DNA from: Chloranthus sessilifolius
Taxonomy: Eukaryota > Streptophyta > Magnoliopsida > Chloranthales > Chloranthaceae
Reading direction: 5' to 3'
Assembly (NCBI GenBank): GCA_021018995.1
Contig: CM037590.1
Location: forward strand, 68,853,597 to 68,917,596
Length of the DNA stretch: 64,000 nt
The notes below the pieces were generated by a model that saw only the letters and a list, made by a program, of their open reading frames with translations, searched no databases and was not told the origin of the DNA. Below are positions 1,516 to 60,354 of the stretch, piece after piece. Position numbers and translations under genes: made by a program. Every line of letters begins with the position of its first letter. The stretch's first letter is position 1.

Positions 1516-2100
1516 TGTAATACCCCGAAAAATCACGTTAAACAATAACCTCGGGATCCGTGCCCGATTGGTCACAGGTTTGACCAATTAGGAGTCCAAT
1601 GGTTAGCATAGAGTGTGATGAATGGATGAGATGTAATAGTTGACTGACTGCGTGGTGTGTGATGTGAATATGAAGTCGCATACACCTATTGCGGTATATG
1701 TGCTCAACACACAAGTGAGGAAAGAGATAAAAGGGTTTAATAACCCTAAAATCTGTATTTGGTTGTTGAGAGAGGAGTAAAGAAGTGAGAGAGAGGAGTA
1801 AAGAGGTTGAGCAAGAGTTATTGTGAGTAATTGGAAGGGAGATTCTAGCATTAAAGAGACCGATTCGACGCGAAGAATCCGTTCAAGCCAAAGCTGGAAC
1901 CCTAGCCTTTCCAACCACTCGATTTGAAATTAATTTGAGATTGATTGAAGGTAGGATTTTGTAGTTTAGATGCATGGATTAAAGGGTTAAGTTGTAGTTA
2001 GAAATAGTGTAAAATGTAGGGTAAAAGCCTAGAAAAATGGAGGAAAAAGTAAGGAAAGGGATTGAGAAGAACAACCAAAAGAGGGCTGAATCTGGCAATT

Positions 2101-2565
2101 TCGATTAATCGAAATTGGGTTTCGATTAATCGAAATTGGGTTTCGATTAATCGAAATTGGCCAAGAAGTTGAAAGTTGAAAAGTCAGAGGACCCCGATCT
2201 CGATTAATCGAATTCAGTTTCGATTAATCGACCTTGGATTTTGATTAATCGAATTGAGAATCGATTAATCGAAGAGCCACTGATGGACTCCAGTGAAGAA
2301 AAGAAATGGGCTTGATGAAATCGACTAATCGAAATGAAGATTCGATTAATCGATTTGTAATTTCGATTAATCGATTTGGGATCGATTAATCGATTTTGGA
2401 AACTCGATTACTCGAATTGAGAATCGACTTGATAGAGCAGAGAATTTCGATTAATAGAATTGGGTTTCAATTAATCGAATGGAAATCTCGATTAATCGAT
2501 TTGAGAATCGATTAATCGATATTGACTTTCGATTAATCGATTTTGGAAATTGATTAATCGACTGG
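2101..2565. repeat. Palindrome cluster TCGATTAATCGA (5' LTR A)
   Basis: About 18 exact or near copies of the 12-bp perfect palindrome TCGATTAATCGA. Start positions include 2101, 2122, 2143, 2200, 2220, 2241, 2261, 2342, 2363 and 2382, so many neighbours lie 19-21 bp apart, close to two helical turns. Spacer sequence varies while the core is kept. The same motif recurs at 9302-10110, 12800-13245 and 59240-59545. Confidence 0.9.
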
Positions 2566-2882
2566 GCCAGTTTATGTTGACTTCTGAGTTTGACTTTGAG
2601 ATTCTTAGGGGTCTTGGACCTCCTTTATTACATCCTTAGTGATGTGTTTCACATGTTATGTGGTACCATAGGTGGTACGTGTGAGCAAGTGCACAAGGAG
2701 CCACGTGGGACCTTGATGCGTTGATCAAACGAAGACTTGAGGTAGGGAACTCCTTGAACATGTACCTTATTTTACAAGAGCATGTATGTAGTGATATAGA
2801 TTTGAAATTCCAAATGTTTTATTGCTTAAAGAGTTGGGAAAAAAGTGTGTGTGTGATATAAATAAAAGAAATCATAATGAGC

Positions 2883-3275
2883 CATCCCCAGGGGATGAAG
2901 AAGTAAAGAGATTAGAGCATCAGGTGTGATACAAGTGAATGGATACATCCCAGGGATGTATCCACGATTGAATCATGTTTGATAGGGCCTAACTGATATA
3001 AGATAGCACATTTACACGGTGAATAACTATATGTAAGGCACTGATATTTTTGTTATTTGAGGTTTGATAGGGTACCCCACCGACGTGGCGGGATATCCAC
3101 GACTGACACGGCAGGATATCCGTGACTGATACGGCGGCGAAACCGTAGGCCAGTGCGGAGGCTTATCCGTACACAGTAAGCATACCCCAGGGGTATTGAT
3201 TTGAGACAAGTGAAACCCCGCCACCAATCCTCAGGGGAAAGGGGCTTGGGTACTATTTGTATTCCCAGGGAATAC
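2883..3275. promoter_or_regulatory. Four CC-A-GG hairpin palindromes (5' LTR A)
   Basis: Perfect inverted repeats around a single central A: 2883-2897 (CATCCCCAGGGGATG), 2941-2963 (23 bp, arms GGATACATCCC), 3182-3196 (ATACCCCAGGGGTAT) and 3259-3275 (GTATTCCCAGGGAATAC). All four recur in the same order in the 3' LTR and, inverted, in the A2 solo LTR. Between copies several arm positions change in matched pairs, keeping the symmetry. They could be dimer-binding DNA sites or RNA hairpins; the sequence does not decide. Confidence 0.7.
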
Positions 3276-3586
3276 GTTAAAAGTGTCTATATAGATGACG
3301 ATGATGGGTATCTCATCGGGGCTCGATGCTATATTGCTCGGGGATTACTTAAGTTGAAAGTTTAAGTTTTGCTTTAGGCCTTTTCAGCATCATTCATGAA
3401 TAAATAAAAGACATGAGTAAACTACCAGTAAAATGTAATGCTTTTAACTGTTTTCATCAGTAACTGCATAGACACATCATGCATGGCATATCATGAAATA
3501 TATGTGAGTAATAATTTATATGTTCAACTGTATTTTGTTCCCTATTGAGCTAGGATGTAGCTCACCCTATAGACTATACGTCGCAG

Positions 3587-3690
3587 GTCCACTACTAGCA
3601 GCTGCCGAGGCTTTAGGAGACGCTGACCCCGGTGAGTCGGACCTTGCAACCGGTGAAGAGTTGGAGCCACCTCCTGAGGACTTCTTCTAG
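3587..3690 (+). CDS. Acidic C-terminal tail exon in 5' LTR A
   Basis: After the acceptor at 3586 an open frame runs 34 codons to TAG at 3688-3690. It is rich in Glu, Asp, Ala and Pro and ends in residues EDFF. The 3' LTR (14267-14370) and the A2 solo LTR (58068-58171, minus) keep the same 104-nt length, phase and stop despite many substitutions. This suggests coding constraint. No convincing start codon or first exon was identified in family A. Function unknown. Confidence 0.4.
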
Positions 3691-4048
3691 AGGACTCCGT
3701 TGTGCCGCTTTGAGGGTTTTTGGATAGAGATTTGTACGGCTTGATATGTCAAGCCTTGTTTTGGCTAAACAATGTACATGTATAAATTGAGATTATTCTT
3801 TTGGGGCGAACCATCCGTGATGATTTGCTATCATCGATGGTTCGGATAGGTTCTCCATTCATGCAGAGGCATGAGGGTAGAACTGTCTTTTGAAAATTGC
3901 TCTTATATAGATTTAAATTCTACAGTTTCATTTACTATTTCATTTTATGCTTGATATGCCAATGTTCTGTGCTTAGCTAAGGGGCACGGTCAAGATGATC
4001 GTGCTGATGGCACGGGTTTCGGGGTGCCAAAATCCGGGCTGTCACAGT

Positions 4049-4062
4049 TGGTATCAAAGCCA
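4049..4062 (+). other. Primer-binding site, initiator-Met tRNA type
   Basis: TGGTATCAAAGCCA begins two bases after the LTR end. It matches the usual plant iMet primer site TGGTATCAGAGC with one G-to-A change. It marks the start of minus-strand DNA synthesis. Confidence 0.85.
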
Positions 4063-4137
4063 TTTCTTTTAGCAATTTTGACAATCGTTCTTTTGGTTTG
4101 AACATAGGGGCTTCTGCTAACGAAACTTTAGTTTCAA

Positions 4138-5527
4138 ATGCAGTCGCAAATGTCATCTACAGGAAGAGGCCGACCAAGGGGAAGCCAACAGAGGAGTCTA
4201 CGTAGTGGAGATGATTACATCTCTCCTACTAATAGAGTGCCTTTAGGAGGTACTGAGGCCCCAGGGGGCAGTGGTAGTAGACAGCATGATGAAGAGGATC
4301 GAGATCGTCAGGATCAAGATCTAAGAGAACAGGAGAGGGTGAGAGAGAGACAAGAAGATAGAGAAGAGCGACAAAGGATGATGCATACTATGGAGACTAT
4401 GGCAGCTGTCATGGCACAACAAGCCGCATCCTTTGCAGCTCATGCATCAAGAGAACAACAGCCACCTACACCACCTGTAGGACCTACGCTGCCTGTGCCC
4501 TCATCCTTTACAGAGTTTAGGAGGATGAGACCTCCTTCATTTTCTGGGCAGGCAGACACCATGGCTGCTGATAACTGGCTTATGGAGATGGAGAAAGTCC
4601 TTAGCGTGTTGACATGCACGGAAAATGAGAGTGTGAGATGGGCAGCTTATATGTTGGATGGGGAGGCTGGGCCTTGGTGGAAGTCCGTGATACGGACTCG
4701 GGCTCAGGAGACCCCAGAGTTACCTTGGACTTGGGAGGAGTTTGTTGAGGAGTTCAACAAACAATATTTTTCAGAAGTGGTGAGGAACCAGCTTGAGATA
4801 CAATTTCTACAGTTAGTGCAAGGGAGAATGACAGTGAGAGAGTATGGGGTGGAGTTTCTACGACTTGCCCGTTTTGCTCCGAATTACGTCGCTATCGACG
4901 TGATGAAATCCAAGAGGTTTCAGTAAGGTTTGAAGCCTGAGGTGAGGGGAGGCGTAGCTCCATTTCAGCTGAGGACCTATGAAGAGGTCATGAGCAAGGC
5001 ATTGGTTGTGGAAGAAGAGAATACGAATAGATATAGACAGAGGGAGCAGCAGAGAGGAGGAAATGAACAAGGAAGATCGGGGAACTACGAACCGGTGAAC
5101 AAAAAGCCGAGGTTCGTGGCCCAAAATCAGAGACCACAGTTCCAAGGGGGTTTCGGAAGGCCGGCGCAACAACACCAACAGAGATTTCCACTACTTGCGT
5201 CAGGGAGACCTTTACGCTATGAGAGCCCTGCCATGTCTACTGGCGCTACTATCACACAGGGTTCTCGTACTGTTTCTTCTGCACCTCGGGAGACTTGCGC
5301 AAAGTGTGGCAAGCCTCATAGAATAGTGGATTGCAGAGCGGGAAATAGGGGTTGTTTTCGATGTGGCAAGGTGGGCCACTTGATCAAGGATTGCCCCGAG
5401 ACGGATAAAAGAAAGACGGTTTCAGTTGCAGCACCACGACCCATTCAAGCAAGGAAACCGATCATTCAGGGGAGAGCTTATGTAATCACTGCTCAGGAAG
5501 CAGGAAACGTGCATGACATCATCCAAG
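4138..5527 (+). pseudogene. gag: Gag of element A, one in-frame stop
   Basis: Starts at ATG 4138. The N-terminal part is Arg/Glu-rich and charged. The retrotransposon Gag core covers roughly 4510-4920, with 'RPPSFSGQAD', 'WLMEMEKVL' and 'WEEFVEEFNKQYF'. It is interrupted by a TAA at 4924-4926 and then continues in the same frame to a CX2CX4HX4C zinc knuckle ('CFRCGKVGHLIKDC', about 5356-5397). The knuckle is preceded by a second Cys-rich piece (CAKCGKPHRIVDC). The exon ends at CAAG|GTGAGA, where an intron separates it from the protease. Gag packages the element RNA into particles. The stop should truncate it to 262 residues. Confidence 0.88.
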
Positions 5528-5694
5528 GTGAGACTCTTTTAGATTAAAGAAATTTCCATTTCATTAAAATTTTAGATAGAGAAAGTGCATGCATTAGGAT
5601 TTGTATAGATTCTTTTTCACAATACTAAATTTATATGTGAATTAGGGGTGTAAATTGATGTGGAAATTATTGTATGTATGTATGTATACTATAG
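5528..5694 (+). other. Intron between Gag and protease (element A)
   Basis: 167 bp with donor CAAG|GTGAGA and acceptor ATACTATAG|GT. Removal joins ...HDIIQG to TLTIYEK in frame (phase 1, split Gly codon) and then to the protease. Family B has an intron at the same codon position (25931-26082 and 34127-34278). The AT-rich content is typical of plant introns. Confidence 0.65.
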
Positions 5695-8600
5695 GTACTT
5701 TAACTATATATGAAAAATGATGCTTCGTTGGATATGATGCTAGGGTGTTGATAGACCCAGGGTCTACCCACTCATTCGTCACTCCACGTTTCGCCAAGAG
5801 GATGAAGATTGTTCCAGAGGCGTTGGACTTCGTCCTATCTGTGTCTATTCCGACTGGAGAGTTAGTGGACATGGAGTTAGCTTGCAAATCCATCATTGTA
5901 GCAATTCGAGACCTAGAGGTACATGAATTGGAAGCAAAGTTGATACTGTTAGACATGCAAGGGTTTGATGTGATCCTTGGCATGGATAGTTGTAAGCGAC
6001 CTGCAAATCGATTGCAAGAACAAGCTAGTCATTTTCAGACCCAACACAAGAAGATCATTTTGGATTTAAGGAGTGAGGGCGTCATCGCTTGATCTCGGCA
6101 GTAAGGGCCGAGAAAATGATCAGAAAGGGTTGCAGTGGATACTTGGCTTTCTTAAAGGAGGACAAGGAAGAAAAGAATGTCATTTCTGAGATAACAGTTG
6201 TGCGAGACTTCGCCGACGTGTTTCCGGAAGAATTGCCTGGATTACCTCCAGAGAGAGAAGTAGAATTCGCCATCGACTTAGCACCAGGAAAGGAGCCTAT
6301 TTCAAAAGTGCCATATCGAATGGCTCCTGCTGAGTTAAAGGAGTTGAAGGAACAACTACAAGAGCTTATGGACAAGGGGTTTGTTAGACCGAGCGTGCCT
6401 CCATGGGGAGCACCAGTCTTGTTCGTCAAGAAGAAAGATGGGTCAATGCGGCTATGCATTGACTATCGACAATTAAACAAACTCACTGTGAAGAACCGCT
6501 ACCCTTTGCCTAGAATTGACGATTTGTTCGATCAACTGCAAGGAGCAAGGTATTTTTCCAAGATCGATCTGAGATCTGGATACCATCAGTTGTGAGTCAA
6601 AGTAGAAGACATCTAGAAGACAGCTTTCAGGACACGGTATGGACACTATGAATTCCTTGTGATGCTGTTTGGGTTGACGAATGCTCCGGCGTCATTTATG
6701 GATCTGATGAACCGAGTGTTTAAACCACACTTGGACTCCTGCGTCGTCTATTGATATACTCCAAATCCAAGACGAAACACGAAGAACATTTGAGGATTGC
6801 TCTACAGACGCTACGTGAATACCAATTGTACGCCAAACTCAGCAAATGTGAGTTTTAGTTGGAAGAGGTTAGCTTTTTGGGACATGTCGTCTCAAAGCAT
6901 GGTGTCACTATAGATCCAGCAAAGATAGAAGCAGTGGTTAAATGGGAGCAGCCAAAGACAGTGATCGATGTCCGAAGTTTTCTGGGCTTAGCAGGCTATT
7001 ATCGACATTTCGTCGAGGGGTTTTCAAAGATATCGGGACCTCTTACAAAGCTGACACGAAAAGATTCAAGATTTGAGTGGAGTGAGGCATGCGAGAAGAG
7101 TTTTCAAGAACTCAAGACGAGACTCACTTCGGCTCCAAACGATTAGTAGCGATTCCTTGAGCAAATGGAGGATACGTGGCAGGTCATATAATGGTTTAGG
7201 TTGTGTGCTCAACCAACACAAGAAGGTGATAGCTTACGAATCAAGACAGCTGAAAGAACACGAGAAAAATTATCTGACTCATGACTTGGAACTAGCAGCA
7301 GTCATTTTTGCGCTGAAGATTTAGAGACATTACTTGTATGGTGAGACTTTTGAGATTTTCACCGATCATAAGAGCCTCCGATACCTGTTTACACAGAAAG
7401 AGCTCAACATGAGATGCCGGTATGGATGGATGGAATTCCTCAAGGATTATGATTGCTCCATACAGTACCATCCAGGCAAGGCGAATGTAGTAGCTGATGC
7501 ATTGAGTCGGAAGGGCTCAGCTCAGTTAGCTTGTTTGGTATTGGGTATGCACCGGTGGAAATTATTGGAAGATCTGGCACTCTACGATGCGAACATTGAG
7601 TCAAAAGCTACCTGATCCTTTTTGGCTAACATATCGGTAAAGCCAGTGATATTTGAGCATATCCACGATCTACAGATGAAAGATCTGGCATTAACAAAGA
7701 TTCATCAAGACGTGAGTGAAGGCATCAGGTCAGACTTCTCAGTTAAAGAAGATGGTTCTTTATTGTTTAAGGGCCGTCTATGCATTCCGGACAATGACGA
7801 TCTAAGACGAACCATTCTTGATGAAGCCCATAAGTCAAATTATGTTATCCACCCTGGTAGCACCAAAATGTACCAAGACTTGAAAAAGAACTACTGGTGG
7901 AGAGGACTGAAGCAAGACGTGGCTGAATACGTGTTACGTGTCACGGTGTTTGACTTGTCAGCAAGTGAAGATTGATTATAGACATCCTGCTGGACTATTG
8001 CAGCCTTTACCAATCCCAGAATGGAAATAGGAATCAATCTCGATGGATTTCATTGTTGGATTGCCCCGTACTGCCAAGAGACACAATGCCATTTGGGTCG
8101 TCGTAGACCGATTGACCAAATCAGCGCACTTTTTGTCGTACAATACTATGTATACGGCAGGAAGACTGGCAGACTTATACATGAAGGAGATCGTAAGGTT
8201 GTATGGGATTCCAAGTAGCATAGTTTCAGATCGTGATCCACTATATACGTCCAAGTTTTGGAAGAAATTTTAAGAAGGAATGGGAACACGACTAGACTTT
8301 AGTTCAGCTTTCCATCCTCAAACTGATGGGCAGACAGAGCGAGTGAACCAAGTGATAGAAGACATGCTCAGAGCGTGCATGCTAGATATGCAAGGATACT
8401 GGGATGAATATCTACCGTTGCTCGAATTCGCATACAACAACAGTTTCCAAACGTGCATTGGCATGGCACCATATGAAGCTCTGTATGGACGACGATGCAA
8501 ATCACCCCTCAATTGGGAAGAAACTGGTGAGAAATTTGTTTTGGGGCCAAAACTACTTGAAGACAACGCCACCGTCGTCCGAATAATCAGAGAAAGGCTG

Positions 8601-9088
8601 AAGTCAGCACAGAGTAGACAGAAAAGTTACGCCGACATGAAGCGGACTAGTGTCGACTATAAAGTGGGCGAGCACGTGTTTGTGAAAGTGTCACCTATGA
8701 AGGGCGTAATGAGATTTGGCAAGAGAGGGAAGTTAAGCCCACGTTATGTTGGACCATTTGAAATTTTAGGACGCGTAGGTGAAGTTGCGTATCGCGTTGG
8801 CTTACCACCACTGTTTGATCGGGTACATAACGTTTTCCACATATCGATGCTCAGAAAGTATGTGAACGATCCATCTCATGTGTTAGGGAAACAACCTATG
8901 GAGATGTGTGAGGACATAAGCATGATAGAGGAACCAGTGGAAATCTTGGATCGAAAGGAACAAGTATCAAGACTAAAGTGATTCCCTTAGTGCTTGTTCG
9001 GTGGAACAATCATCCAAAGGAAGAGGCTACTTGGGAACGAGAGGCCGATGTGAAAGAACAATATCCAGCCTTATTTCCAACGACGTGA
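5695..9088 (+). pseudogene. pol: Pol of element A (protease-RT-RNase H-integrase-chromodomain)
   Basis: Order: aspartic protease with active site 'DPGSTHSF' (about 5753-5776) and 'VILGMD' (5970s); reverse transcriptase from about 6180 ('[20 protein letters not shown]', '[11 protein letters not shown]'); RNase H (7190-7600); integrase zinc-binding region (about 7820-7930); integrase core ('MDFIVGLPRTAK' 8043, 'VSDRDPLYTS' 8228, 'TDGQTERVNQVIEDM' 8321); C-terminal chromodomain (about 8985-9085) ending TGA at 9086-9088. Breaks include TGA near 5719, stops at 6593 and about 6613, loss of the RT catalytic YxDD segment near 6750, deletion of the RNase H start near 7140, TAG near 7322, and TAA at 8271. 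The degraded 'GMDSCKRPAN' segment and the missing catalytic residues make it inactive. Confidence 0.9.
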
Positions 9089-9300
9089 GAATCCAATGTA
9101 AATCACAAGCATGTTTGTGGAATCTCCACAATACTTGTAATTCAATGGAAGTTTTGATCAAAGTATGATTAAAGGAACAAATTTTTGTATGCACATGACT
9201 ATGAGGATGTGTTTTTATGGAACTATGAACCACTTGATGTCATAAACTACCAAAAGAAATCAAAGAACCAAGGAAATTGAAAATCTGCAGAAATTGGGCA
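9089..9300. other. Spacer after pol, no gene seen
   Basis: The start of the extra module that family B lacks. I see no coding signal, only AT-rich sequence leading into the palindrome array. Confidence 0.6.
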
Positions 9301-9301
9301 A

Positions 9302-10110
9302 AATCGATTAATCGAATTTCAAATCAATTAATCGATTTAGAATTTCGATTAATCGATTTTGTTCGATTAGTCGACTGGCATGTGCCAGTGACTGGAAATT
9401 TGGATAAGAGTTAGGACAGACACAGAATACAATTTCGATTGATCAATTTATAATTTCGATTAATCGATTTGGGATCGATTAATTGATTTTGGGAATTCGA
9501 TTAATCGAACATACTGGGAATGTTAGAAGAAATTAGGAATGAATTAATGAAAATTCGATTAATCGAGGAGGTTTCGATTAACCGATTTGAGATTTCGATC
9601 AATCAAACTGAAAGTTTGATTAATCGAGGAGGTTTTGATTAACCGATTTGAGCTTTCGATCAATCGAACTGAAAGTTCGATTAATCAATTTGCTTAAAGG
9701 AACCATGAAAATTCTAAGACAGAGAAACGATTTCAATTAATCAAAGTAGAATTCGATTAATCGATTTGAAATTTCGATTAATCGAACCATAGTTCGACTA
9801 ATCGAATAACTTAAGGAATCCTGAAATTTTTGGAAGTTACTGCACGATTTCGATTAATCGAAGTGAATTTCGATTAATCGATTTTGAAATTTCGATTAAT
9901 CGAAATGGATTTCGATTAATCGATTGGCTCGCGCCAGTGAGCTCTAAAACTTAAATTTTTAAATGGATACGATTTCGATTAATCGAAATGTTTTCGATTA
10001 ATCGAATTTGACTTTCGATTGATCGATTTGGGAAATCGATTAATCGATTTTGCGCGGCTTAACCTAGTTTTGAATCTCGATTAATCGATTCTGAATTTCG
10101 AATAATCGAG
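9302..10110. repeat. Large TCGATTAATCGA palindrome array upstream of accessory ORF
   Basis: About 30 exact or one- to two-base-variant copies of TCGATTAATCGA. Typical spacing is 20-22 bp, for example four copies at 9845-9925. A roughly 60-bp higher-order unit is duplicated at about 9545-9675. The array stops within about 15 bases of a TATA box (10119) for the downstream ORF, so it lies where a promoter/enhancer would. The same palindrome fills the LTRs. Confidence 0.9.
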
Positions 10111-10118
10111 CCGAGGCC

Positions 10119-10126
10119 TATATATT
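10119..10126 (+). promoter_or_regulatory. TATA box of accessory ORF promoter
   Basis: 'ctatatatt' directly after the palindrome array and about 235 bases before ATG 10358. The intervening leader has a CTT-rich pyrimidine stretch (10187-10210), common in plant 5' UTRs. It points to an internal promoter separate from the LTR. Confidence 0.55.
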
Positions 10127-10357
10127 GAAATTTGGGGATTTTCTTTCCCATTCGAATCATTTGAGCTTAGAGATTTTTTGGGCGCTTCATCTTCTTCTTC
10201 TTCTTCTCCAACCATCCGGTGCCCTAGGGTTTGCATCTCCGTGGTTTTCGGCTCGTATTCAAATCATAACGCCTCCAAAACCCGCGGTAAACCCTAATTT
10301 CGTACTTTTCCTTCAATTTGAGCTTGCTAAACCCTAGATTTTTGCTATTTTCTAAAA

Positions 10358-11938
10358 ATGCCGCCCAAAACCCGGTTGTCTTCGAAGAAGGCAACCTCTA
10401 AGCTACCGGTTCGGCGTAAGAACGCCGCACCACCACCACCTACCCCTTCGCCGGTGAGGACTCCATCACCGTCGGCATCGGAGACCACCTCCGGTTCGAC
10501 GAGCGCATCTTCACACGAGTCCACCCCCATGCCCCCACCACCCACTAATGTGGTGCAACCAAATGAATTGTGGGCCGCAAAGACCTTTGAGGTCGAGTAC
10601 CTCATCGACCCTACCCTTTTCACAAATCCTGATGTACCGGGCGAGACCCAATGGGCTCGTAATTACCTTAACAATGCCGGTCTCGGCAACCTTCTCAAAC
10701 CAATCCGGGGTTCCTACTACCCTAGATTGGTGAGATTATTTTACCAAGGGCTTGTGGACGGCCCGACTGACGATGTAATCAAGACCACCATCGAGGGTCG
10801 GGATTACACGATCACACGTCGCCACGTCCACGAGGTGCTTGAGTGCTACCTCGACTTTACCCCCGAGACCACCCTATTCCCACCCTTTGAGGAGGACCCC
10901 CGCTTTGAGGAGGTCATGACCCACATGACCAACGGCAAAAAGGGGTCGGGATCCTCCATAAAGAGGGTTGACCTTCCCCACTATATGTGGATGCTTGACT
11001 CAGTGATCAAGTGCAACCTCTACCCTATGCGCCACGATACCGAGCGCGTGGATCGAGTGCAACACGCACTCTACGCGGCCTTCTGTGGCCGATGGTTCGA
11101 CGCCACCATGGTCATCCTTGAGGGGATGAGGTATATTAAGGGCAAACTGATGAAGGGCAACCTCCGGCCCAAAGAGAAGATACCCTATGCTCACCTCATC
11201 TCGAGCATGTTGGAGTGCTACTCCAACGATCCCTCCTACACCATCTCACCTCACGAGGTGAGGGCTACGGACTACGTGAAGACGTTCTCCAAGTCTTCAT
11301 GGACCCGTAGCTACAACCTGCTCAAGCAGACCCTACCGACTCCGGGTCCCGCTCCAGCAGCAGCAGCAGCAGTCGCACCGCCACCACCCCCACCACCACA
11401 GCAGGACCCACCCGTGGGTGGGGCACACCCAACCGAGCCTTCAATAGAGAGGGCCACCTCTCACACTGCGGCCTCACCGACACCGCCCGCTCACTCCGCG
11501 CCCGCTACACCCACCTCATCATACCGCCGGCGCACCGCCCCATCCGGTCCTACCATTGAAGACATGTTGACTCGCATGGAGGCCAACAACGAGCGGATGA
11601 ACCGGAGGATGGACTTCTTGATGTTCCACACCCTCCGCTACATCTACCCGACGGACTACCACCGCTACCTTGCTCAGGAGGAGTGGACTGCCGGACGGAC
11701 CGCCTTCCACAGGGGTCCCATCTTCCATCCCACCACAGCCACTACCGACGCGGATCCTTCCACATCTACCCCCCCGCTCCGCCGACAGAGACGCCGCAGT
11801 CACAGCCACCGCTACCTCCGCCTACTCAGCCAGCACAGTCGCCACCACCGCCGTCACAGCCAGCTCCAGCAGACCCACCAGCCCGTGCCTGCTCACCTCG
11901 AGATGGAGTGCCGCTCCCACCGCCCTGGCGAGGGCTGA
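10358..11938 (+). CDS. Accessory ORF of element A, transposon-protein-like
   Basis: 526 codons, sense orientation, with a good plant start context (aaaaATGcc). Residues 1-65 are basic then Ser/Thr/Pro-rich. Residues about 70-325 form a globular domain ('YYPRLVRLFYQGL', 'RHVHEVLECYLDF', 'LPHYMWMLDSVIKCNLYPM', 'VQHALYAAFCGRWFDATMVI'); its pattern recalls the 'putative plant transposon protein' domain found beside plant retroelements. Residues 330-395 are Ala/Pro-rich, then a probable coiled coil (about 400-425, 'EDMLTRMEANNERMNRRM'). It is GC-rich and open although the neighbouring pol is decayed. The last about 55 codons (Arg/His-rich) may be frame-shifted: after the seven-C run at 11769-11775 another frame reads a Pro/Gln-rich tail. 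Function unknown; a DNA-binding or anti-silencing role is only a hypothesis. Confidence 0.8.
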   Translation: MPPKTRLSSKKATSKLPVRRKNAAPPPPTPSPVRTPSPSASETTSGSTSASSHESTPMPPPPTNVVQPNELWAAKTFEVEYLIDPTLFTNPDVPGETQWARNYLNNAGLGNLLKPIRGSYYPRLVRLFYQGLVDGPTDDVIKTTIEGRDYTITRRHVHEVLECYLDFTPETTLFPPFEEDPRFEEVMTHMTNGKKGSGSSIKRVDLPHYMWMLDSVIKCNLYPMRHDTERVDRVQHALYAAFCGRWFDATMVILEGMRYIKGKLMKGNLRPKEKIPYAHLISSMLECYSNDPSYTISPHEVRATDYVKTFSKSSWTRSYNLLKQTLPTPGPAPAAAAAVAPPPPPPPQQDPPVGGAHPTEPSIERATSHTAASPTPPAHSAPATPTSSYRRRTAPSGPTIEDMLTRMEANNERMNRRMDFLMFHTLRYIYPTDYHRYLAQEEWTAGRTAFHRGPIFHPTTATTDADPSTSTPPLRRQRRRSHSHRYLRLLSQHSRHHRRHSQLQQTHQPVPAHLEMECRSHRPGEG

Positions 11939-12203
11939 CTCTTATATTTATTTTGTTTGAGTTATGATTGTATACATGTAGATTTTGTACGCCAACTTAT
12001 CTGGCATTGTAAAAATTTTCAATTATAAATATAAATCAAAATTTTGGTGTAAACTCTTCAATTTCGTAACATTTTAATTCTACGCTGGTATTCGTAATTA
12101 CCTGGAGGCGTCTGAGTCAATTGGACCGCCTCACCTGAGAGTGTGGGGGGGGGGGAGAGACCCCGTCCGACGCACTTTGGGTTATTTTCGAGGACGAAAA
12201 TTC
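11939..12203 (+). other. 3' flank of accessory ORF, polyadenylation-like
   Basis: AT-rich stretch with 'aattataaatataaatc' (12020-12037), plausible as a 3' UTR and poly(A) region of the accessory gene. It is followed by a G-run (12144-12154) and the pol-end motif 'ttttcgaggacgaaaa' that in family B sits just after the pol stop. No further ORF. Confidence 0.45.
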
Positions 12204-12218
12204 CCAAGGTGGGGAGGA
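12204..12218 (+). other. Polypurine tract of element A
   Basis: 'aaggtggggagga' abuts the 3' LTR start. This is the expected plus-strand primer for reverse transcription. Confidence 0.75.
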
Positions 12219-14726
12219 TGTAATACCCCAAAAAATCACGTTAAACAGTGACCTCGGGATCCGTGCCCGATTGGTCACAGGTTTGACCAATTAGGAGTCC
12301 AATGGTTAGCATAGAGTGTGATGAATGGATGAGATGTAATGGTTGACTGACTGCGTGGTGTGTGATGTGAATATGAAGTCGCATACACCTATCGCGGTGT
12401 ATGTGCTCAACACACAAGTGAGGAAAGAGATAAAAGGGTTTAATAACCCTAAAATCTGTATTTGGTTGTTGAGAGAGGAGTAAAGAAGAGAGAGAGAGGA
12501 GTAAAGAGGTTGAGCAAGAGTTATTGTGAGTGATTGGAAGGGAGATTCTAGCATTAAAGAGACCGATTCGACGCGAAGAATCCGTTCAAGCCAAAGCTGG
12601 AACCCTAGCCTTTCCAACCACTCGATTTGAAATCAATTTGAGATTGATTGAAGGTAGGATTTTGTAGTTTAGATGCATGGATTAAAGGGTTAAGTTGTAG
12701 TTAGAAATAGTGTAAAATGTAGGGTAAAAGCCTAGAAAAATGGAGGAAAAAGTAAGGAAAGGGATTGAGAAGAACAGCCAAAAGAGGGCTGAATCTGGCA
12801 ATTTCGATTAATCGAAATTGGGTTTCGATTAATCGAAATTGGCCAAGAAGTTGAAAAGTCAGAGGACCCCGATCTCGATTAATCGAATTCAGTTTCGATT
12901 AATCGACCTTGGATTTCGATTAATCGAATTGAGAATCGATTAAGCGACTGGGAGCCTACAGTGGACTCCAGTGAAGAAAAGAAATGGGCTTGATGAAATC
13001 GACTAATCGAAATGAAGATTCGATTAATCGATTTGTAATTTCGATTAATCGATTTGGGATCGATTAATCGATTTTGGAAACTCGATTACTCGAATTGAGA
13101 ATCGACTTGATAGAGCAGAGAATTTCGATTAATCGAATTGGGTTTCAATTAATCGAATGAAAATTTCGATTAATCGATTTGAGAATCGATTAATCGATAT
13201 TGACTTTCGATTAATCGATTTTGGAAATCGATTAATCGACTGGGCCAGTTTATGTTGACTTCTGAGTTTGACTTTGAGATTCTTGGGGGGTCTTGGACCT
13301 CCTTTATTACATCCTTAGTGATGTGTTTCACATGTTATGTGGTACCATAGGTGGTACGTGTGAGCAAGTGCACAAGGAGCCACGTGGGACCTTGATGCGT
13401 TGATCAAACGAAGACTTGAGGTAGGGAACTCCTTAAACATGTACCTTATTTTACAAGAGCATGTATGTAGTGATATAGATTTAAAATTCCAAATGTTTTA
13501 TTGCTTAAAGAGTTGGGAAAAAAGTGTGTGTGTGATATAAATAAAAGAAATCATAATGAGCCATCCCCAGGGGATGAAGAAGTAAAGAGATTAGAGCATC
13601 AGGTGTGATACAAGTGAATGGATACATCCCAGGGATGTATCCACGATTGAATCATGTTTGATAGGGCCTAACTGATATAAGATAGCACATTTACACGGTG
13701 AATAACTATATATAAGGCACCGATATTTTTGTTATTTGAGGTTTGAATGGGTACCCCACCGGCGTGGCGGGATATCCACGACTGACACGGCAGGATATCT
13801 GTGACCGATACGGCGACGAAACCGTAGGCCAGTGCGGAGGCTTATCCGTACACAGTAAGCACAACCCAGGGGTGTTGATTTGAGACAAGTGAAACCCCGC
13901 CACCAATCCTTAGGGGAAAGGGGCTTGGGTACTATTTGTATTCCCAGGGAATACGTTAAAAGTGTCTATATAGATGACGATGATGGGTATCTCATCGGGG
14001 CTCGATGCTATATTGCTCGGGGATTACTTAAGTTGAAAGTTTAAGTTTTGCTTTAGGCCTTTTCAGCATCATTCATGAATAAATAAAAGACATGAGTAAA
14101 CTACCAGTAAAATGTAATGCTTTTTAACTGTTTTCATCAGTAACTGCATAGACACATCATGCATGGCATATCATGAAATATATGTGAGTAATAATTTATA
14201 TGTTCAACTGTATTTTATTCCCTATTGAGCTAGGATGTAGCTCACCCTATAGACTATACGTCGCAGGTCCACTACTAGCAGCTGCCGAGGCTTCAGGAGA
14301 CGCTGACCCCAGTGAGTCGGACCTTGCATCCGGTGAAGAGTTGGAGCCACCTCCTGAGGACTTCTTCTAGAGGACTCCGTTGTGCCGCTTTGAGGGTTTT
14401 TGGATAGAGATTTATACGGCTTGGTATGTCAAGCCTTGTTTTGGCTAAACAATGTACATGTATAAATTGAGATTATTCTTTTGGGGCGAACCATCCATAA
14501 TGATTTGCTATCATCGATGGTTCGGATCGGTTCTCCATTCATGCAGAGGCATGAGGGTAGAACTGTCTTTTAAAAAATGCTCTTATATAGATTTAAATTC
14601 TGTAGTTTCATTTACTATTTCATTTTGTGCTTGATATGCCAATATTCCGTGCTTAGCTAAGGGGCACGATCAAGATGATCGTGCTGATGGCACGGGTTTC
14701 GGAGTGCCGAAATCCGGACTGTCACA
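12219..14726 (+). repeat. 3' LTR of element A
   Basis: 2508 bp, TGTAATACCCC to CTGTCACA. Near-identical to 1516-4046, with a shorter palindrome cluster (12800-13245) lacking one TCGATTAATCGA unit of the triple at 2101-2154. The hairpins lie at about 13562-13576, 13620-13642, 13861-13875 (one mismatch) and 13938-13954. The donor AAG|GTAGGA is retained near 12652. Confidence 0.93.
14267..14370 (+). CDS. Acidic tail exon in 3' LTR A
   Basis: Same 104-nt frame as 3587-3690, with only a few substitutions (for example Leu to Ser, Gly to Ser, Thr to Ser) and the same terminal EDFF and TAG. Confidence 0.4.
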
Positions 14727-14731
14727 GTTTC

Positions 14732-20715: not shown

Positions 20716-21203
20716 TATAGGTTGATGCAGCCAATCACGTTACGTCCAATGATAATATTATTATCATTAGACGTTCAATATAGGAATTCATGAGTCATCA
20801 CAAAAACGGCCCTAAAATCACGTTTGAGAGTGATGTGTGTCATGCAACTTTAGGTCTGCTCTTTTGGGATCTGTGCCACATTGATTTAAGAACTGCGGGT
20901 CTGACCATGAATCAAAATATCGTCCGATATCGATACGTATCGGATGTGAATGATACGGTACATTAAATGTACCGTATCGTTCATTAGTATTGCAGATACC
21001 GGACGATACATTCAATGCATCGTCCGGTACACTATTGTTCCAATACGTATCGTCAGATACATCCCGATTTTTTGATCGGACGATACGTACCATTTTTCCG
21101 ACATTTTGATCATTAAGTCTGACAGTACATTCGTGGTCTCAAGATCTAGTGTGGAGCATATTAAGATGAAAAATGATCTCCATCTTCTAATTTCAAGAGT
21201 TTA
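20716..21203. repeat. Degenerate MITE-derived spacer before compound B
   Basis: Contains the perfect palindrome AATGATAATATTATTATCATT near 20748-20768. Words such as 'ggccctaaaatcacgtttga.agtgatg' and 'gtggtctcaagatc' are shared with the MITE at 47394-47816. The MITE copy at 20906-21116 is nested within it. No gene. Confidence 0.5.
20906..21116 (+). mobile_element. 'GATACGGTACATT' MITE, copy 2
   Basis: Flanked by GTCTGAC at 20899-20905 and 21117-21123. Ends CATGAATCAAAAT and ATTTTGATCATTAA. It has the internal palindrome 'gatacggtacatt'/'aatgtaccgtatc' (about 20951-20978) and the pair 'accggacgatacattc'/'gcatcgtccggt'. Confidence 0.7.
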
Positions 21204-21636
21204 TGTAACAACCCAGATTTTTAGATTTTATTTTAACGGTGGTAGATGATGCACCACACTATGTACTGTGCTAACGCTCCACATCAGAATCGAAACCCAC
21301 CTTTTAAAATAGAAAATTTCTAATTTTTCCCATATCAAAATTAGACTCATTGCGAAGTGCTCGTCGATACGATTCCAACGATATATAATTTGACGATTTC
21401 TGACAAGAATATAAAAAGTTATACTCATTTTAACTAATCAAGCAAGTCAAAGGGTATAATTGTAATTTCGGGAGAGAAACACCAATTGGTTTGGTGCTTA
21501 TGCAAAACGCTGGAACGAAACCTTTTCTCAAGCTATCCAAGTTACGTATGAATTCTTATTCCGTGTAAAAATCTCCTATCCTATTAAATCTCCTACGAAA
21601 AGTGTTAATTAGAGTTGACCTAAAATTTCATACCAT

Positions 21637-21644
21637 TATAAATA
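21637..21644 (+). promoter_or_regulatory. LTR promoter TATA box (B1)
   Basis: TATAAATA, repeated exactly at 29860-29867 and 37991-37998 and, inverted, at 51445-51452 in the solo LTR. A start of transcription about 30 bases downstream would give a short exon 1 before the donor at 21771. Confidence 0.6.
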
Positions 21645-21770
21645 AAACTTTAAAAGCTCTCTCCTCTGAATAATAAGAAATTATTCTCTCGAGACTTAGA
21701 GGAGCCGATGCCTTGGGAATCGACCTTTTCAACCCGAATCGCCGTTGATCTTCCGTTCACGCTTCAAGAG

Positions 21771-24033: not shown

Positions 24034-24191
24034 GTGATTACGCTGGTGGAGTAGACGCTGGCCATCTAGATCTCGCCGACGCTGATTTCATTGATTCCGC
24101 GGGCGTTGAGTACCAGGAGCCTTTGGAGGGCGACGCTGCCGGTTATCAGGAGGACTACGGTGCTAATCTTGATTCGAGTGCCAGTTACTGA
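24034..24191 (+). CDS. Acidic tail exon in LTR B1
   Basis: 158 nt from the acceptor to TGA (24189-24191). About 52 residues rich in Asp, Glu, Gly, Ala and Tyr, ending in residues SSASY. Copies with the same length and phase lie at 15274-15431, 32273-32430, 40382-40539 and 48879-49036 (minus; the last has an in-frame TAG). Composition resembles an acidic activation-type tail; the role is unknown. Confidence 0.45.
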
Positions 24192-24498
24192 TCATTGTGG
24201 ACTTGGTATTGAGTTTTATTGATACTAGTACTACGGATTTTATAGTTTATTTTATCGGATTTGTCTCCGACTGGATTTACATTTTATTGGTGGATTATGA
24301 TTTTATTACACTTATTCAGCATTTATGATTATTTTATATTCCACTTTGGTATGTTGGCTTTCACGGATTTCGTGGAACCATTATTGCACGAGAACTCTGA
24401 TTAGGTGTATGTCCGCTTAGCATATCCGGGATATGTGCGGGTCATAACTCGGAATTCTAGGCCCTCGGGATGGGGTAGAATTTCGGGTCGTGACAGAG

Positions 24499-24510
24499 TG
24501 GTATCAGAGC
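24499..24510 (+). other. Primer-binding site, iMet tRNA (B1)
   Basis: TGGTATCAGAGC three bases after the LTR end, a perfect plant initiator-Met primer match. Confidence 0.9.
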
Positions 24511-24590
24511 AACAGGCTTTACTTTCTGTGGACTCTGGGATTTAAGTTAGTACGAGTTCTAAATCCTTGAAATTTTGAAACAGGATTACA

Positions 24591-25930: not shown

Positions 25931-26082
25931 GTATGAATTTTTCCTTGTCTAATTTTCTTTAAGCTTTACTCCCTCATGATTGCTTTTATAACTTATTCTG
26001 TGCATGAGTTTAATCTATTATTTTCTTGAGAATGTTATGCCATGTATAACTTAGATCACATATAAATCCTTGTGTAATTCAG
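25931..26082 (+). other. Intron between Gag and protease (B, copy 1)
   Basis: 152 bp, donor CAGG|GTATGA and acceptor TGTAATTCAG|GA. AT- and T-rich with several stops. Splicing joins VVQG to TIKVF through a split Gly codon (phase 1), the usual chromovirus reading into the protease. Confidence 0.7.
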
Positions 26083-29391: not shown

Positions 29392-29412
29392 TTTTCGAGG
29401 ACGAAAATATTA

Positions 29413-29426
29413 TAAGGGGGAGAGAA
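29413..29426 (+). other. Polypurine tract (B, copy 1)
   Basis: 'taagggggagagaa' ends at the LTR start 29427. The equivalent in copy 2 is 37557-37570. Confidence 0.75.
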
Positions 29427-32732: not shown

Positions 32733-32735
32733 GAG

Positions 32736-32747
32736 TGGTATCAGAGC
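32736..32747 (+). other. Primer-binding site, iMet tRNA (B2)
   Basis: TGGTATCAGAGC after the middle LTR, so the second internal region has its own priming site. Confidence 0.9.
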
Positions 32748-32827
32748 AACAGGCTTTACTTTCTGTGGACTCTGGGATTTAAGTTAGTATGAGTTCTAAA
32801 TCCTTGAAATTTTGAAACAGGATTACA

Positions 32828-37535: not shown

Positions 37536-37570
37536 TTTTCGAGGACGAAAATATTATAAGGGGGAGAGAA

Positions 37571-40843: not shown

Positions 40844-40848
40844 GTTTA

Positions 40849-57244: not shown

Positions 57245-57699
57245 TTATCGTAGCTGATATCACCGAAGTAACGGTGGATGGACACTACGGGTTTAGCGCT
57301 ATTGCACATTGGTTAGGGATCGCTACGATGGATGGAAGGTAGTGCGACCAGGTTTGTTGGCTGAGTTGACCTCTCGCACGGAGAAGTATTTACCGATTTT
57401 TGGCAGTCAAGACCGAATGATTCAGATACATACGATCCTCAACTGCTTCACTGACCATGCTTGGAGTGCCTATTGGATGATTGTGCCGAACATGGGATAC
57501 CTAATAGTGTCGTACTATTGTACCCCTTTAGTCCTTCTTAGTACCCGACTTTGTATAATATTTTTTCCATTGTGGACAGTAGCAGACACAACGAATAAGG
57601 TGATTTGCATCGCTCACGCGAACGACTGTCACTTCATCCTAGTGACCTTGATTAAAGATAGTCCTATTCCATCATCGACAATTGTATGGAGTCAAAGGC
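57245..57699 (+). pseudogene. OTU-like domain of MULE pseudogene, Cys lost
   Basis: 'VTVDGHYGFSAIAHWLG' occupies the place of the OTU-protease DG(N/H)CGF motif, but the Cys is Tyr. It is followed by 'DGWKVVRPGLLAELTSR', 'VPNMGYLIVSYYCTPLVLLS', and 'NDCHFILVTL', the usual catalytic-His region. OTU domains remove ubiquitin or similar modifiers; with Tyr for Cys this copy should be inactive. The frame leads directly into the solo LTR at 57700. Confidence 0.65.
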
Positions 57700-58067
57700 T
57701 GTGACAGCCCAGATTTCGACACCCCGAAACCCGTGTCATCAGCACGATTCTCCACACCGTGCCCCATGGATATGTACGGAACATTGGTATAACAAGCAAT
57801 AATAAAAAGATAAAGCAAATAACTGCATAAAGCGAAAAAGAAATGAATATGTCCATCTGGCACATACAAAAGGCAGTTCTACTTTCATGCCACTGCATGA
57901 ACAGAGAACCGATCCGAACCATCAGTGATAAATAGATCACCCCAGATGGTTCGCCCAAAAGAATTATATCTATCTAATTACATGGTTTATCAAAATAAAG
58001 GCTCGACATACCAAGCCGTACAATCTGCTCTCAAAACTGACTCTATCAAAGTACACAACAAAGTCTC

Positions 58068-58171
58068 CTAGAAGAAGTCCTCAAGAGGGGGGTCCAACTC
58101 TTCCCACGGCCCGTAATCCGAATCACTCGGATCTACGTCTCCTGAAGCCTCGGCCGCTGCTAAAATTGGAC
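58068..58171 (-). CDS. Acidic tail exon in A2 solo LTR
   Basis: 104 nt, open, same phase, length and terminal EDFF-stop as in element A, with about a third of residues changed (central DVDPSDSDYGPWEELD). No indel relative to A. Confidence 0.42.
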
Positions 58172-58501
58172 CTGCGACGTATAGTCTAAAGGGTGAGCTA
58201 CATCCTACTCAATAGAAAACAACACAATGAACATATAAATCAAAATCTCACATATATTCTATGATATTCTAAGCATGATATATCTATGCACTTGCTGGAA
58301 AAATAGTTTAAAATATGGCAATTTGCATTCAAATTTACTGGTAGTTTACATGTTTCACTTTACTTGTTAATTTATCATGAATGACACTGAACAGGCCTAA
58401 AGGAAAACTTAAATCTTCAACTTAAGTAATCCCCGAGTAATATAGCATCGAGCCCTGATGGGATACCCTCCATCGTCGTCTAAATAGATAGTTGTTAAAA
58501 A

Positions 58502-58874
58502 GTATTCCCTGGGAATACGACCGAAGCCCCTTTCTCAATAGGCGGCGGGGTTAAATTTCATCTCAACATCCCTGGGATGTGCTTACTGTGTACGGATAGA
58601 CCTCCACACTGGTGTACGGATTGGCCTCCGTACCGGTCACGGATATCCTGTCGAGTCAGTCATCGATATCCCGCCACGTCGGTGGGGTATCCTAATTAAA
58701 CCTCAAATAATAAAAATAACATGTGCTTTACATATAGTTGTTCACTGTGTAAATGTGCTATCTTATATCAGTTATGCCTTAACAGTAGTGATTCAATCTT
58801 ACATACATCCCTGGGATGTCTAAATTACTCGCATCGCACTTATGCCCTTATCACTTTCTCATCTCCTGGAGATG
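58502..58874. promoter_or_regulatory. Four hairpin palindromes in A2 solo LTR
   Basis: 58502-58518 (GTATTCCCTGGGAATAC), 58566-58580 and 58805-58819 (both ACATCCCTGGGATGT) and 58860-58874 (CATCTCCTGGAGATG), all perfect. They are in the same order, inverted, as in element A. Confidence 0.7.
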
Positions 58875-59239
58875 CCTCATTTTCATTAACTTACTTGGTC
58901 TCAGTTATTCGCATCACACTGATGCATTTATTACTTTTTTGGTGTCACATACACACCCATTTTTTACAAAGATTTATACAATTAAAAATATTTTTAATTT
59001 GATCTCTACATCACTATATACATTCTCTTGCAATTAAAGTACATGTTCAAGGTATTCCCTACCTCAAGTCTCTGAAGGTCCAAGCATCAAGGTTCCACAC
59101 GGCTCCTTATGTTTGCTTTCACACGTACCACCTATGGTACATCATAACACATGCAACACATCACTAAAGATGTAATAGAGAAGGTCCTAGACCCTCCATG
59201 AACCTCAAGGTCCAATTGAAAAGTTAAGTGAAACTGTCA

Positions 59240-59545
59240 AAATCGATTAATCGAACCCTAAATAGATTAATCGATTCCCAAAACCAATTAATCAAAATCC
59301 AAAATCGATTAATCGAATTCCCTTGAATGTTTAAATCAATTCTCAAATCGAGTAGTCGACAATCTGAAATCGATTAGTCAATCCCAAATCGATTAATCGA
59401 AATTCAAAATCGATTAGTCGATTTCTCCAAGTCTTATTTCTCCAGCCACTGGAGGTACCCAGTCGATTAGTCAATTTCCAAATCGATTAATCGAAATCGG
59501 GCATCCTTGACATTTCAACTTCTAAACTAAAATCGATTAATCGAT
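59240..59545. repeat. TCGATTAATCGA cluster in A2 solo LTR
   Basis: About a dozen exact or variant copies (for example 'atcgattaatcgaa', 'atcgattagtcgat', 'aaccaattaatcaa'). Less dense and more decayed than in element A. Confidence 0.8.
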
Positions 59546-59760
59546 TTGGCTAGATTCAGCCTCTTTTCGGGTTGTTCTTCCAAATCTTTTCCTTATAATT
59601 TTTCTTTCTTTTCTAGGTCTTTAATCTTTCATTTTGACTGTACTTAACTGAATTAAATTCATCAAATCTCTAGGTATTGAAATCTAACAAAACTTACCTC
59701 AATAATCCCTTAAAGGATTGATTTATTGGGTTTGATGGCTAGGGTTCCAGCTTTTCGCTT

Positions 59761-59885
59761 CAACGGTTCCTCATGCGTTGAATTCAGCATTCAATGCTCT
59801 AATCTCTCTCTCTCTCTCAACGGTTCCTCATGCGTTGAATTCAGCATTCAACGGTTCCTCATGCGTTGAATTCAGCATTCAATGC
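59761..59885. repeat. Triplicated about 31-bp unit in A2 LTR first exon
   Basis: Three copies of 'caacggttcctcatgcgttg' plus 'aattcagcatt' near 59761, 59818 and 59849, the first two separated by a CT microsatellite. Local duplication just upstream (minus sense) of the LTR donor. Confidence 0.8.
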
Positions 59886-60354
59886 TCTTCTTGATTTGCA
59901 TTAACTCCTAGCCCAATAACTCCTCTTTACTCCCTCTCTCTCTCTCTTCTTAACTCTCTCTTCAACAACCAAACAAAAGGATTCTAGGTTTAATAAAACC
60001 CTGATATCCTCTCCCAGATATATAAAACCCTTATAACACTTGTGTGTTAAACACATACACCAGAGATAGGTGTACATGACCACTAACTCACACTATACAC
60101 TACCCTTAGGTCATATTGACATCTCATCAGTTTATCCCCTTTATGAGTCTACTATTTGACCATCACTTGGTCAAACTCAAGACCAGTCGGGCACGGATCT
60201 CGAGGTCACCGTTTAACGCTCAATTTTTTGGGATATTACAAAGGCTATTATCTGATTTGAGAATTGACTGTGCTAAATCATGTGAAAGAAATAGTATTTT
60301 GTTACAAACTTTTTTATCAAAATCTTTAGACTATAGTCCTCAAATCAGACAATC

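What the first reader, a model, noticed from the sequence alone, without database searches (positions are those of the whole stretch)
9089..12203. Retrotransposon cargo module: palindrome array, TATA box and long accessory ORF
Seen: between the pol stop and the polypurine tract, element A has 3.1 kb that the related family B lacks. It is ordered as about 30 TCGATTAATCGA palindromes, a TATA box, a pyrimidine-rich leader, a 526-codon ORF and an AT-rich 3' flank. The ORF is open while gag-pol has many lesions. The same palindrome fills the LTRs. Known: extra ORFs occur in some plant Ty3/gypsy elements, and VANC proteins of VANDAL Mutator elements bind short dispersed motifs in their own element and counter silencing. 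Inference: the ORF product may bind TCGATTAATCGA in its own promoter and the LTRs, as an autoregulator or anti-silencing factor.
Basis: partly seen in the sequence, partly recalled or inferred. Interest (0 to 1): 0.86.

Follow-up and report, generated by a model that had tools for sequence, protein, structure and literature searches.

The report
Retrotransposon accessory gene with own promoter
A very abundant plant jumping gene carries an extra protein gene that natural selection has kept working, with what looks like its own promoter built from the same short palindrome that fills the element's main promoter, which suggests that the element regulates itself.

Summary
Element A (1516-14726) is a Ty3/gypsy, probably chromovirus, retrotransposon nested in a B-family LTR. 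Between pol stop and pre-polypurine-tract box, where family B has nothing, it carries 29 TCGATTAATCGA-like sites at ~20.4-bp steps (two helical turns), a TATA box, a leader and a 526-codon ORF. It is no one-off: all 40 genome copies fetched through the ORF have array and TATA, with last palindrome to TATA 21 bp in 40 of 41 copies. The ORF is under purifying selection: variants shared by 6 or more of 41 copies are 15 nonsynonymous to 152 synonymous, against about 2.2-2.4 to 1 expected. A second sample, picked by non-coding DNA, agrees (33:115). The phased palindrome pair occurs 109,796 times in the 2.17-Gb genome, the control pattern never. The protein is a remote Transposase_32 relative, not a VANC. 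The window copy leaves the commoner family frame near codon 472. Best model: an accessory regulator gene whose internal promoter shares its operator array with the LTRs, like foamy-virus Tas or VANC. That the protein itself binds the palindrome is inferred, not shown.

The parts
1516..14726 (+). Element A, Ty3/gypsy LTR retrotransposon, probably a chromovirus, nested in a B-family LTR; 5-bp target duplication GTTTC at 1511-1515 and 14727-14731
1516..4046 (+). 5' LTR
   Evidence: 97.5% identical to the 3' LTR over 2506 aligned sites, K2P 0.025; end
2101..2561 (+). Palindrome array in 5' LTR, 18 sites with at most 2 mismatches
4049..4060 (+). Primer binding site TGGTATCAAAGC, tRNA-Met type (type recalled)
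4138..9088 (+). gag-pol remnant with about a dozen interruptions: gag, zinc knuckle, protease, RT, integrase pieces
9304..10109 (+). Module palindrome array, 29 sites with at most 2 mismatches, in runs at 18-22 bp steps
10119..10125 (+). TATA box TATATAT, 21 bp after the start of the last palindrome
   Evidence: 21 bp in 40 of 41 copies
10150..10357 (+). Presumed leader, pyrimidine-rich, no ATG (transcript start not shown)
10358..11938 (+). Accessory ORF, 526 codons; codons 1 to ~472 in the family frame; Transposase_32-like region at residues 108-259
11939..12184 (+). AT-rich 3' flank of the ORF, end of the module
12185..12200 (+). Box TTTTCGAGGACGAAAA before the polypurine tract, shared with family B; downstream border of the module
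12206..12218 (+). Polypurine tract
12219..14726 (+). 3' LTR
12804..13239 (+). Palindrome array in 3' LTR, 17 sites with at most 2 mismatches
57699..60244 (-). Diverged relative of the A LTR (about 75% identical outside the array) that keeps 10 palindromes with at most 2 mismatches

Best explanation
The module is a self-contained accessory gene of a very abundant plant retrotransposon. Shown by sequence: an ORF under purifying selection lies behind a promoter-like region with its own TATA box, preceded by an array of helically phased TCGATTAATCGA palindromes that also fill the LTR upstream region. Inferred: the palindrome is a dimer operator that ties the LTR promoter (genomic RNA) and the internal promoter (accessory protein) into one circuit. 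Inferred, and more likely than any single rival: the accessory protein, with a basic N-terminus, a Transposase_32-like core and a possible coiled coil, acts at these sites in trans to activate or un-silence the element, like foamy-virus Tas at LTR and internal promoter, or VANC proteins at their motif repeats.
For: Family-wide module: 40 of 40 ORF-selected copies (ranks 2-41 of 82 scored) have array and TATA. Last palindrome to TATA is 21 bp in 40 of 41. Spacing within runs 20.4 +/- 1.0 bp, n=775 steps of 17-24 bp; only two gaps of 25-39 bp separate these from the longer gaps. Selection on the ORF: dN/dS 0.127 (0.094 for residues 68-326), n=41, against 0.181 for a pol piece, n=38; variants in 6+ copies N15:S152 against N/S 2.2-2.4 expected under assumed mutation weights, singletons N/S 1.78. 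Sample chosen by non-coding flank: dN/dS 0.327, variants in 3+ copies N33:S115, 16 of 20 copies without stop. Motif more conserved than spacer in 20 independent pairs: 349/5843 against 753/7995, lower in 15 of 20, Wilcoxon p 0.0024. Motif kept in the diverged C LTR: 120/131 aligned positions against spacer 107/182 and rest of LTR 1516/2020. Sites only in the two presumed promoter regions of element A. An ordered triplet of spacers is shared by LTR and module arrays (23 of 26 letters; 0.4% of 2000 shuffles reach it), so the arrays probably have a common origin. Heptad pattern at residues 400-421, 2.3% of shuffles.
Against: No recognisable DNA-binding domain: of eight copies scanned in Pfam one had a PadR-like hit at E 0.21, not significant; NCBIfam and PDB sequences gave nothing useful. 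No binding or transcript data. Two structure models were too poor to use. The copies are related by descent, so the shared TATA spacing is partly ancestry. The arrays are tandem repeats, which by itself gives regular spacing. With motifs masked, LTR and module arrays show no significant similarity. Motif and ORF were not shown to co-vary across families: LTR C keeps the motif and its ORF was not examined. In the A-C comparison 85 of 216 motif positions did not align. Between the two LTRs of this copy the motif is hardly slower (4 of 204 against 58 of 2302), as expected without selection after insertion. The first ORF sample was ranked by protein score, which lowers dN; the second gives a weaker, though still clear, signal. 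12 of 41 ORF copies carry a stop (pol piece: 25 of 38).
Confidence: 0.45

Rival explanations
1. A host transcription factor binds the palindromes. The element spread this host site through its LTR and reused it to drive the accessory gene, whose product does something else (particle, movement, nuclear import or RNA-silencing role), as proposed for other plant accessory ORFs.
For: The diverged C LTR keeps the motif. The protein has no known DNA-binding domain. Other Transposase_32 ORFs abound in the genome; the one examined, L076, has no palindrome within its 3.2 kb. Published proposals for other plant accessory ORFs do not involve a repeated motif in the passages that I read.
Against: Such dense, phased arrays placed in both presumed promoters and nowhere else in the element fit an element-specific regulator well. 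No host factor for this site is known to me (recall).
Confidence: 0.35
2. The array is a by-product of tandem duplication (slippage), as in many plant retrotransposon 3' regions, and has no regulatory role; only the ORF is functional.
For: Tandem periods of 19-21, 61 and 118 bp; array size varies between copies, 18 to 45 sites.
Against: Motif changes more slowly than spacers although it holds two CpGs; pairwise identity 92% for motifs (sites chosen by at most 2 mismatches) against 51% for short spacers, 39% for shuffled spacers; motif kept in the diverged C LTR; 21-bp step to TATA in 40 of 41.
Confidence: 0.12
3. The array serves host silencing or chromatin rather than the element, for instance as a CpG-dense methylation target; its conservation reflects recent homogenisation.
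For: CpG observed/expected 2.63 in the array; 284 of 515 changes within 1074 sites are CpG transitions, as expected for methylated DNA.
Against: An element gains nothing by keeping a silencing target; non-CpG positions 4, 9 and 12 are nearly invariant (2, 3 and 3 changes in 1074 sites).
Confidence: 0.08

Closest known systems
Transposase_32 (PF20167) accessory ORFs, e.g. Athila 14 ORF(+) of sunflower (PMC11728184, section 9 read)
   Same: Sense accessory ORF at the 3' side of the element, similar length (487 aa there), partial PF20167 match in the middle of the protein
   Different: Here in a probable chromovirus; match 34 bits, below Pfam's 45-bit cut-off; with a phased palindrome promoter shared with the LTR, which the sections I read do not describe
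Tekay-group 5' accessory ORFs (PMC11728184, sections 9 and 10 read)
   Same: Chromovirus accessory ORF conserved across hundreds of copies (500 of 523 there)
   Different: Those lie 5' of gag-pol and had no Pfam domain match; this one lies 3' of pol
Grande gene23 and Retand TRP28 ORFs (PMC7264820, two of three parts read; PMC11963269, passages)
   Same: Accessory gene in a long pol-to-3'LTR region, with tandem repeats in about half of the Retand elements; Grande gene23 has its own promoter and a nuclear product
   Different: Those ORFs are antisense, in non-chromovirus elements, with other domains; no shared LTR/internal-promoter motif described in what I read
VANC/VANDAL anti-silencing system (PMC5735166, PMC10398659, passages read)
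   Same: Mobile element with an accessory protein and short motifs accumulated as tandem repeats in its own non-coding regions
   Different: DNA transposon; VANC proteins carry DUF1985/DUF287; binding and demethylation proven there; motifs there are 8-9 bases, not a 12-bp palindrome
Foamy virus Tas with LTR and internal promoter (PMC8670036, start of abstract in listing)
   Same: Regulator acting on both an LTR promoter and an internal promoter; gene near the 3' end (recalled)
   Different: Vertebrate retrovirus, unrelated protein; transactivation proven there, only inferred here

Membership tests
Transposase_32 (PF20167) | Profile match above curated cut-off (45 bits) | tested here: not met
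   34.1 bits, E 3.2e-8; seven other copies 25.9-35.9 bits
Transposase_32 (PF20167) | Significant match over most of the profile | tested here: met
   E 1e-5 or better in 8 of 8 proteins; profile positions 4-150 of 177 in 5, 4-149 in 2, 7-150 in 1. Direct BLASTP to one canonical member, L076, is not significant, best E 0.28
VANC | DUF1985 domain | tested here: not met
   No match at E up to 10 in 8 copies; DUF1985 as VANC feature
VANC | Sequence-specific binding of its own repeat motif | not testable with these tools
   Needs protein
Plant chromovirus (Ty3/gypsy) | Integrase followed by a chromodomain | tested here: inconclusive
   Integrase C-terminal SH3 domain E 7.9e-25; several close pol relatives carry PF00385 chromodomain; the window's own terminal 36-residue piece gave no Pfam hit
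LTR retrotransposon | Paired LTRs TG...CA, 5-bp target duplication, primer site, polypurine tract | tested here: met
3' sense accessory ORF (aORF) | Present in most copies and conserved like gag-pol | tested here: met
   Conservation. Presence: 20 of 20 copies picked by the 3' flank hold ORF sequence, 18 of 20 over 97% or more of codons 1-472. Copies lacking the whole 3' part would not be found this way; of four pol-selected copies three have the array and one is interrupted
Foamy-virus-like two-promoter circuit | Accessory protein binds sites in both LTR and internal promoter | not testable with these tools
   Shared sites shown; binding not tested

The most novel reading that the evidence does not exclude
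A plant LTR retrotransposon evolved a two-promoter regulatory circuit of its own: an accessory DNA-binding protein, of a family so far called 'putative plant transposon protein', binds a phased palindrome as a dimer in its own promoter and in the LTRs, activating or un-silencing the element, and this circuit helped the family reach a very high copy number. It would give a function to a large class of orphan accessory ORFs.
Probability: 0.38. Interest if true: 0.88.

Novelty: new variant of a known kind. Interest (0 to 1): 0.72.

Why it matters
Nearly 4000 plant LTR retrotransposons with extra ORFs have been catalogued (PMC6317226, passage: 582 plus 3372 elements) and the functions of these ORFs are largely unknown. 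Here the ORF is shown to be kept by selection, and the DNA offers a concrete candidate target, a 12-bp palindrome in both presumed promoters, so the question of what such a protein does becomes a simple gel-shift experiment. If positive, it would be a retrotransposon counterpart of VANC anti-silencing or of foamy-virus Tas. Whether accessory ORFs of LTR retrotransposons shape their own methylation is raised as an open question in PMC12844716 (passage).

Tried and rejected
Protein relatives outside this genome: none at E 0.001 (only the 7994 candidates sharing most words were scored) or, for residues 68-326, at E 0.1 among 423 candidates, although a pol control found 7957 of 7990 scored candidates; the database therefore holds plant elements, but word-based search may miss distant kin. 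Viral contigs, plasmids and PDB sequences (one chance-like hit at E 0.099) gave no usable relative. Two structure predictions without relatives had mean pLDDT 42 and 38, so no fold search was made. NCBIfam: none. A literature search for the palindrome and two related strings found 14 papers; from titles and abstract starts none concerned a plant retrotransposon. Searches for accessory ORFs, internal promoters or PF20167 listed none that I recognised as this arrangement; I read only the papers named in this report, mostly in passages.

Idea that the module array is a copy of the LTR array: common origin supported by one ordered spacer triplet, but motif-masked BLAST found nothing significant. 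Idea of a one-off nested insertion: rejected, because the pol piece lies upstream in 39 of 40 ORF-selected copies and the array in all 40. One pol-selected copy without palindromes (L075) is interrupted by another element's LTR 120 bp after pol. Idea that the open ORF alone proves selection: rejected, family data used instead. Idea that the ATG-free leader of the window copy is telling by itself: rejected, 20% of shuffles also lack ATG. Leader divergence (about 20%) is higher than array spacer divergence (about 9%) in the same 20 pairs; alignment of repeats probably understates spacer change, and I could not resolve this. The phased palindrome pair occurs in three bacterial/archaeal contigs, once just upstream of an ORF that reads like a helix-turn-helix regulator (Pfam scan of it failed); taken as convergence. 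A look at the genus Camellia in the taxonomy was a guess at the host from genome size and chromosome number; the host is not established.
Full report
What is there. Element A spans 1516-14726, has LTRs of about 2.5 kb that are 97.5% identical (62 substitutions in 2506 aligned sites and 4 gaps, K2P 0.025; about 1.0-1.8 million years at rates that I recall), a 5-bp duplication GTTTC on both sides, and is inserted in an LTR of family B, whose relatives flank it. Its gag, zinc knuckle, protease, RT and integrase pieces match Pfam; several close pol relatives carry a chromodomain, though the window's own terminal piece gave no Pfam hit. I call it a probable chromovirus; the Tekay/Del assignment is recalled, not tested. 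Gag-pol is interrupted about a dozen times (frame walk).

The module. In the two B copies the pol stop directly abuts the box TTTTCGAGGACGAAAA before the polypurine tract; in A, 3.1 kb (9089-12184) lie between them. The array has 29 sites with at most two mismatches, 15 exact; 300 shuffles of the region give 0.8 on average, 4 at most. Within element A such sites occur only here and in the LTRs (18 and 17), never in gag-pol, leader, ORF or 3' flank.

Phasing. Within runs, sites follow each other at 20.4 +/- 1.0 bp (775 steps of 17-24 bp in 41 copies), that is, two helical turns; longer gaps start, but for two cases, at 40 bp, and runs of four are commonest. The TATA box begins 21 bp after the start of the last palindrome in 40 of 41 copies and 23 bp in the other. 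Tandem duplication contributes to this regularity, and the copies are related.

Not a one-off. The window lies in a 2.17-Gb genome in which 82 relatives of the ORF were scored, all starting at residue 1-3 and reaching residue 470 or beyond (lower bound). I fetched ranks 2-41 of these. All 40 have the array (18 to 45 sites over the 2.4 kb upstream), and all 41 copies, the window's included, have a TATA motif at -216 to -240; LTR palindromes were seen in 39 of 41; 35 of 41 leaders have no ATG; the pol piece was found upstream in 39 of 40; the start codon is in the same place in 40 of 41. Of four copies found through pol, three have the array and one is interrupted by another LTR before it. The phased exact pair occurs 109,796 times in the genome; the reversed pattern 0 times. 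At 20 exact pairs in the window copy this corresponds to some 5,000 full-length equivalents, solo LTRs included.

Selection on the ORF. In the 41 copies dN/dS is 0.127 (0.094 for residues 68-326) and 0.181 for a pol piece in 38 of them; frame-shifting gaps are 0.9 per kb in the ORF and 1.6 in the pol piece. 12 of 41 ORFs carry a stop within 472 codons, 25 of 38 pol pieces within about 289. Variants seen once have N/S 1.78, not far from the neutral expectation of 2.2-2.4 under assumed transition and CpG weights (mutations mostly after insertion); variants in six or more copies have 15 N to 152 S (pol: 6 to 41). Because these copies were ranked by protein score, I took a second sample by similarity of the non-coding 3' flank: 40 hits scored, 20 fetched (ORF only, without the array). 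In 18 of these 20 the ORF aligns in one piece over 97% or more of codons 1-472; 16 of 20 have no stop in the window's frame; with the window copy added, dN/dS is 0.327 (0.225 for residues 68-326), singletons are 255 N to 164 S and variants in three or more copies 33 N to 115 S. The ORF has therefore been kept by selection while the family multiplied.

Selection on the motif. In 20 independent pairs of copies, 349 of 5843 motif positions differ against 753 of 7995 spacer positions; the motif rate is lower in 15 of 20 pairs (Wilcoxon p 0.0024). In the diverged C LTR, 120 of 131 aligned motif positions agree, against 107 of 182 spacer and 1516 of 2020 other LTR positions (85 of 216 motif positions did not align, and aligning a repeat favours motif matches). 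Between the two LTRs of the window copy the motif is hardly slower (4 of 204 against 58 of 2302), as expected after insertion. Of 515 changes in 1074 module sites, 284 are CpG transitions, while positions 4, 9 and 12 are nearly invariant.

The protein. The only significant family match is Transposase_32 (PF20167), E 3e-8, 34 bits, below Pfam's cut-off of 45; seven other copies behave alike, one with an added non-significant PadR hit. The same genome holds at least 150 stronger PF20167 places; one of these, L076, is a 395-codon frame with a Pro-rich stretch and no palindromes within 3.2 kb, and it has no significant BLASTP similarity to ours. Residues 1-67 are basic (9 K/R, 2 D/E), 327-395 are 30% proline, and 400-421 show a heptad pattern (2.3% of shuffles reach it). 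The window copy leaves the commoner family frame between codons 465 and 480: 39 of 40 copies share its frame at 465, 5 of 40 at 480, among these L017 and L024, two of its closest kin, so its Arg/His-rich end is unlikely to be part of the usual family protein.

Mechanism. Shown: an accessory gene under selection, with its own promoter-like region, whose upstream array is of one kind with the LTR array. Inferred: the palindrome is bound by a dimer; the two promoters are co-regulated. Least certain: that the accessory protein is the binder. Foamy viruses use Tas on LTR and internal promoter (PMC8670036, start of abstract in search listing), and VANC proteins bind motifs that accumulate as tandem repeats in their own element and remove silencing (PMC5735166 and PMC10398659, passages read).

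Relation to the literature. Accessory ORFs of plant LTR retrotransposons are well known (PMC7264820, parts 1 and 2 of 3 read; PMC6317226, passages). A PF20167 accessory ORF is reported in a sunflower Athila element (PMC11728184, passages and sections 9 and 10 read); chromovirus accessory ORFs are given there as examples of 5' ORFs. Retand elements combine pol-3'LTR repeats and antisense ORFs (PMC11963269, passages). That accessory ORFs of LTR retrotransposons might act on their own methylation is raised as an open question in PMC12844716 (passage). What I did not find in these searches is a 3' sense accessory gene of a chromovirus whose promoter shares a phased palindrome array with the LTR. 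Hence: a new variant of a known kind.

Noticed in passing
window 21203-40844: Family B forms a tandem LTR-internal-LTR-internal-LTR array, with a further LTR copy at 48575-51901 on the other strand.
   Followed up: no
window 57699-60244 and 63487-64000: Two diverged relatives of the A LTR in opposite orientation, with inverted repeats at 60363-60890 and 61122-61736 between them.
   Followed up: partly
L002:796-827 and 829-1608: In an Elusimicrobia MAG contig the same palindrome occurs twice, 20 bp apart, directly before an ORF whose N-terminus reads like a helix-turn-helix regulator (by eye); probably convergent use as an operator.
   Followed up: partly
own genome G000: At least 150 places match Transposase_32 above its cut-off, many with open frames of 395 codons: another abundant ORF family.
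   Followed up: partly
window 10278-10297: This 20-bp leader block with GGTAAACCCTAA is among the best conserved of the leader (0.93; adjacent blocks 0.65 and 0.76); AAACCCTA occurs again at about 10331.
   Followed up: no
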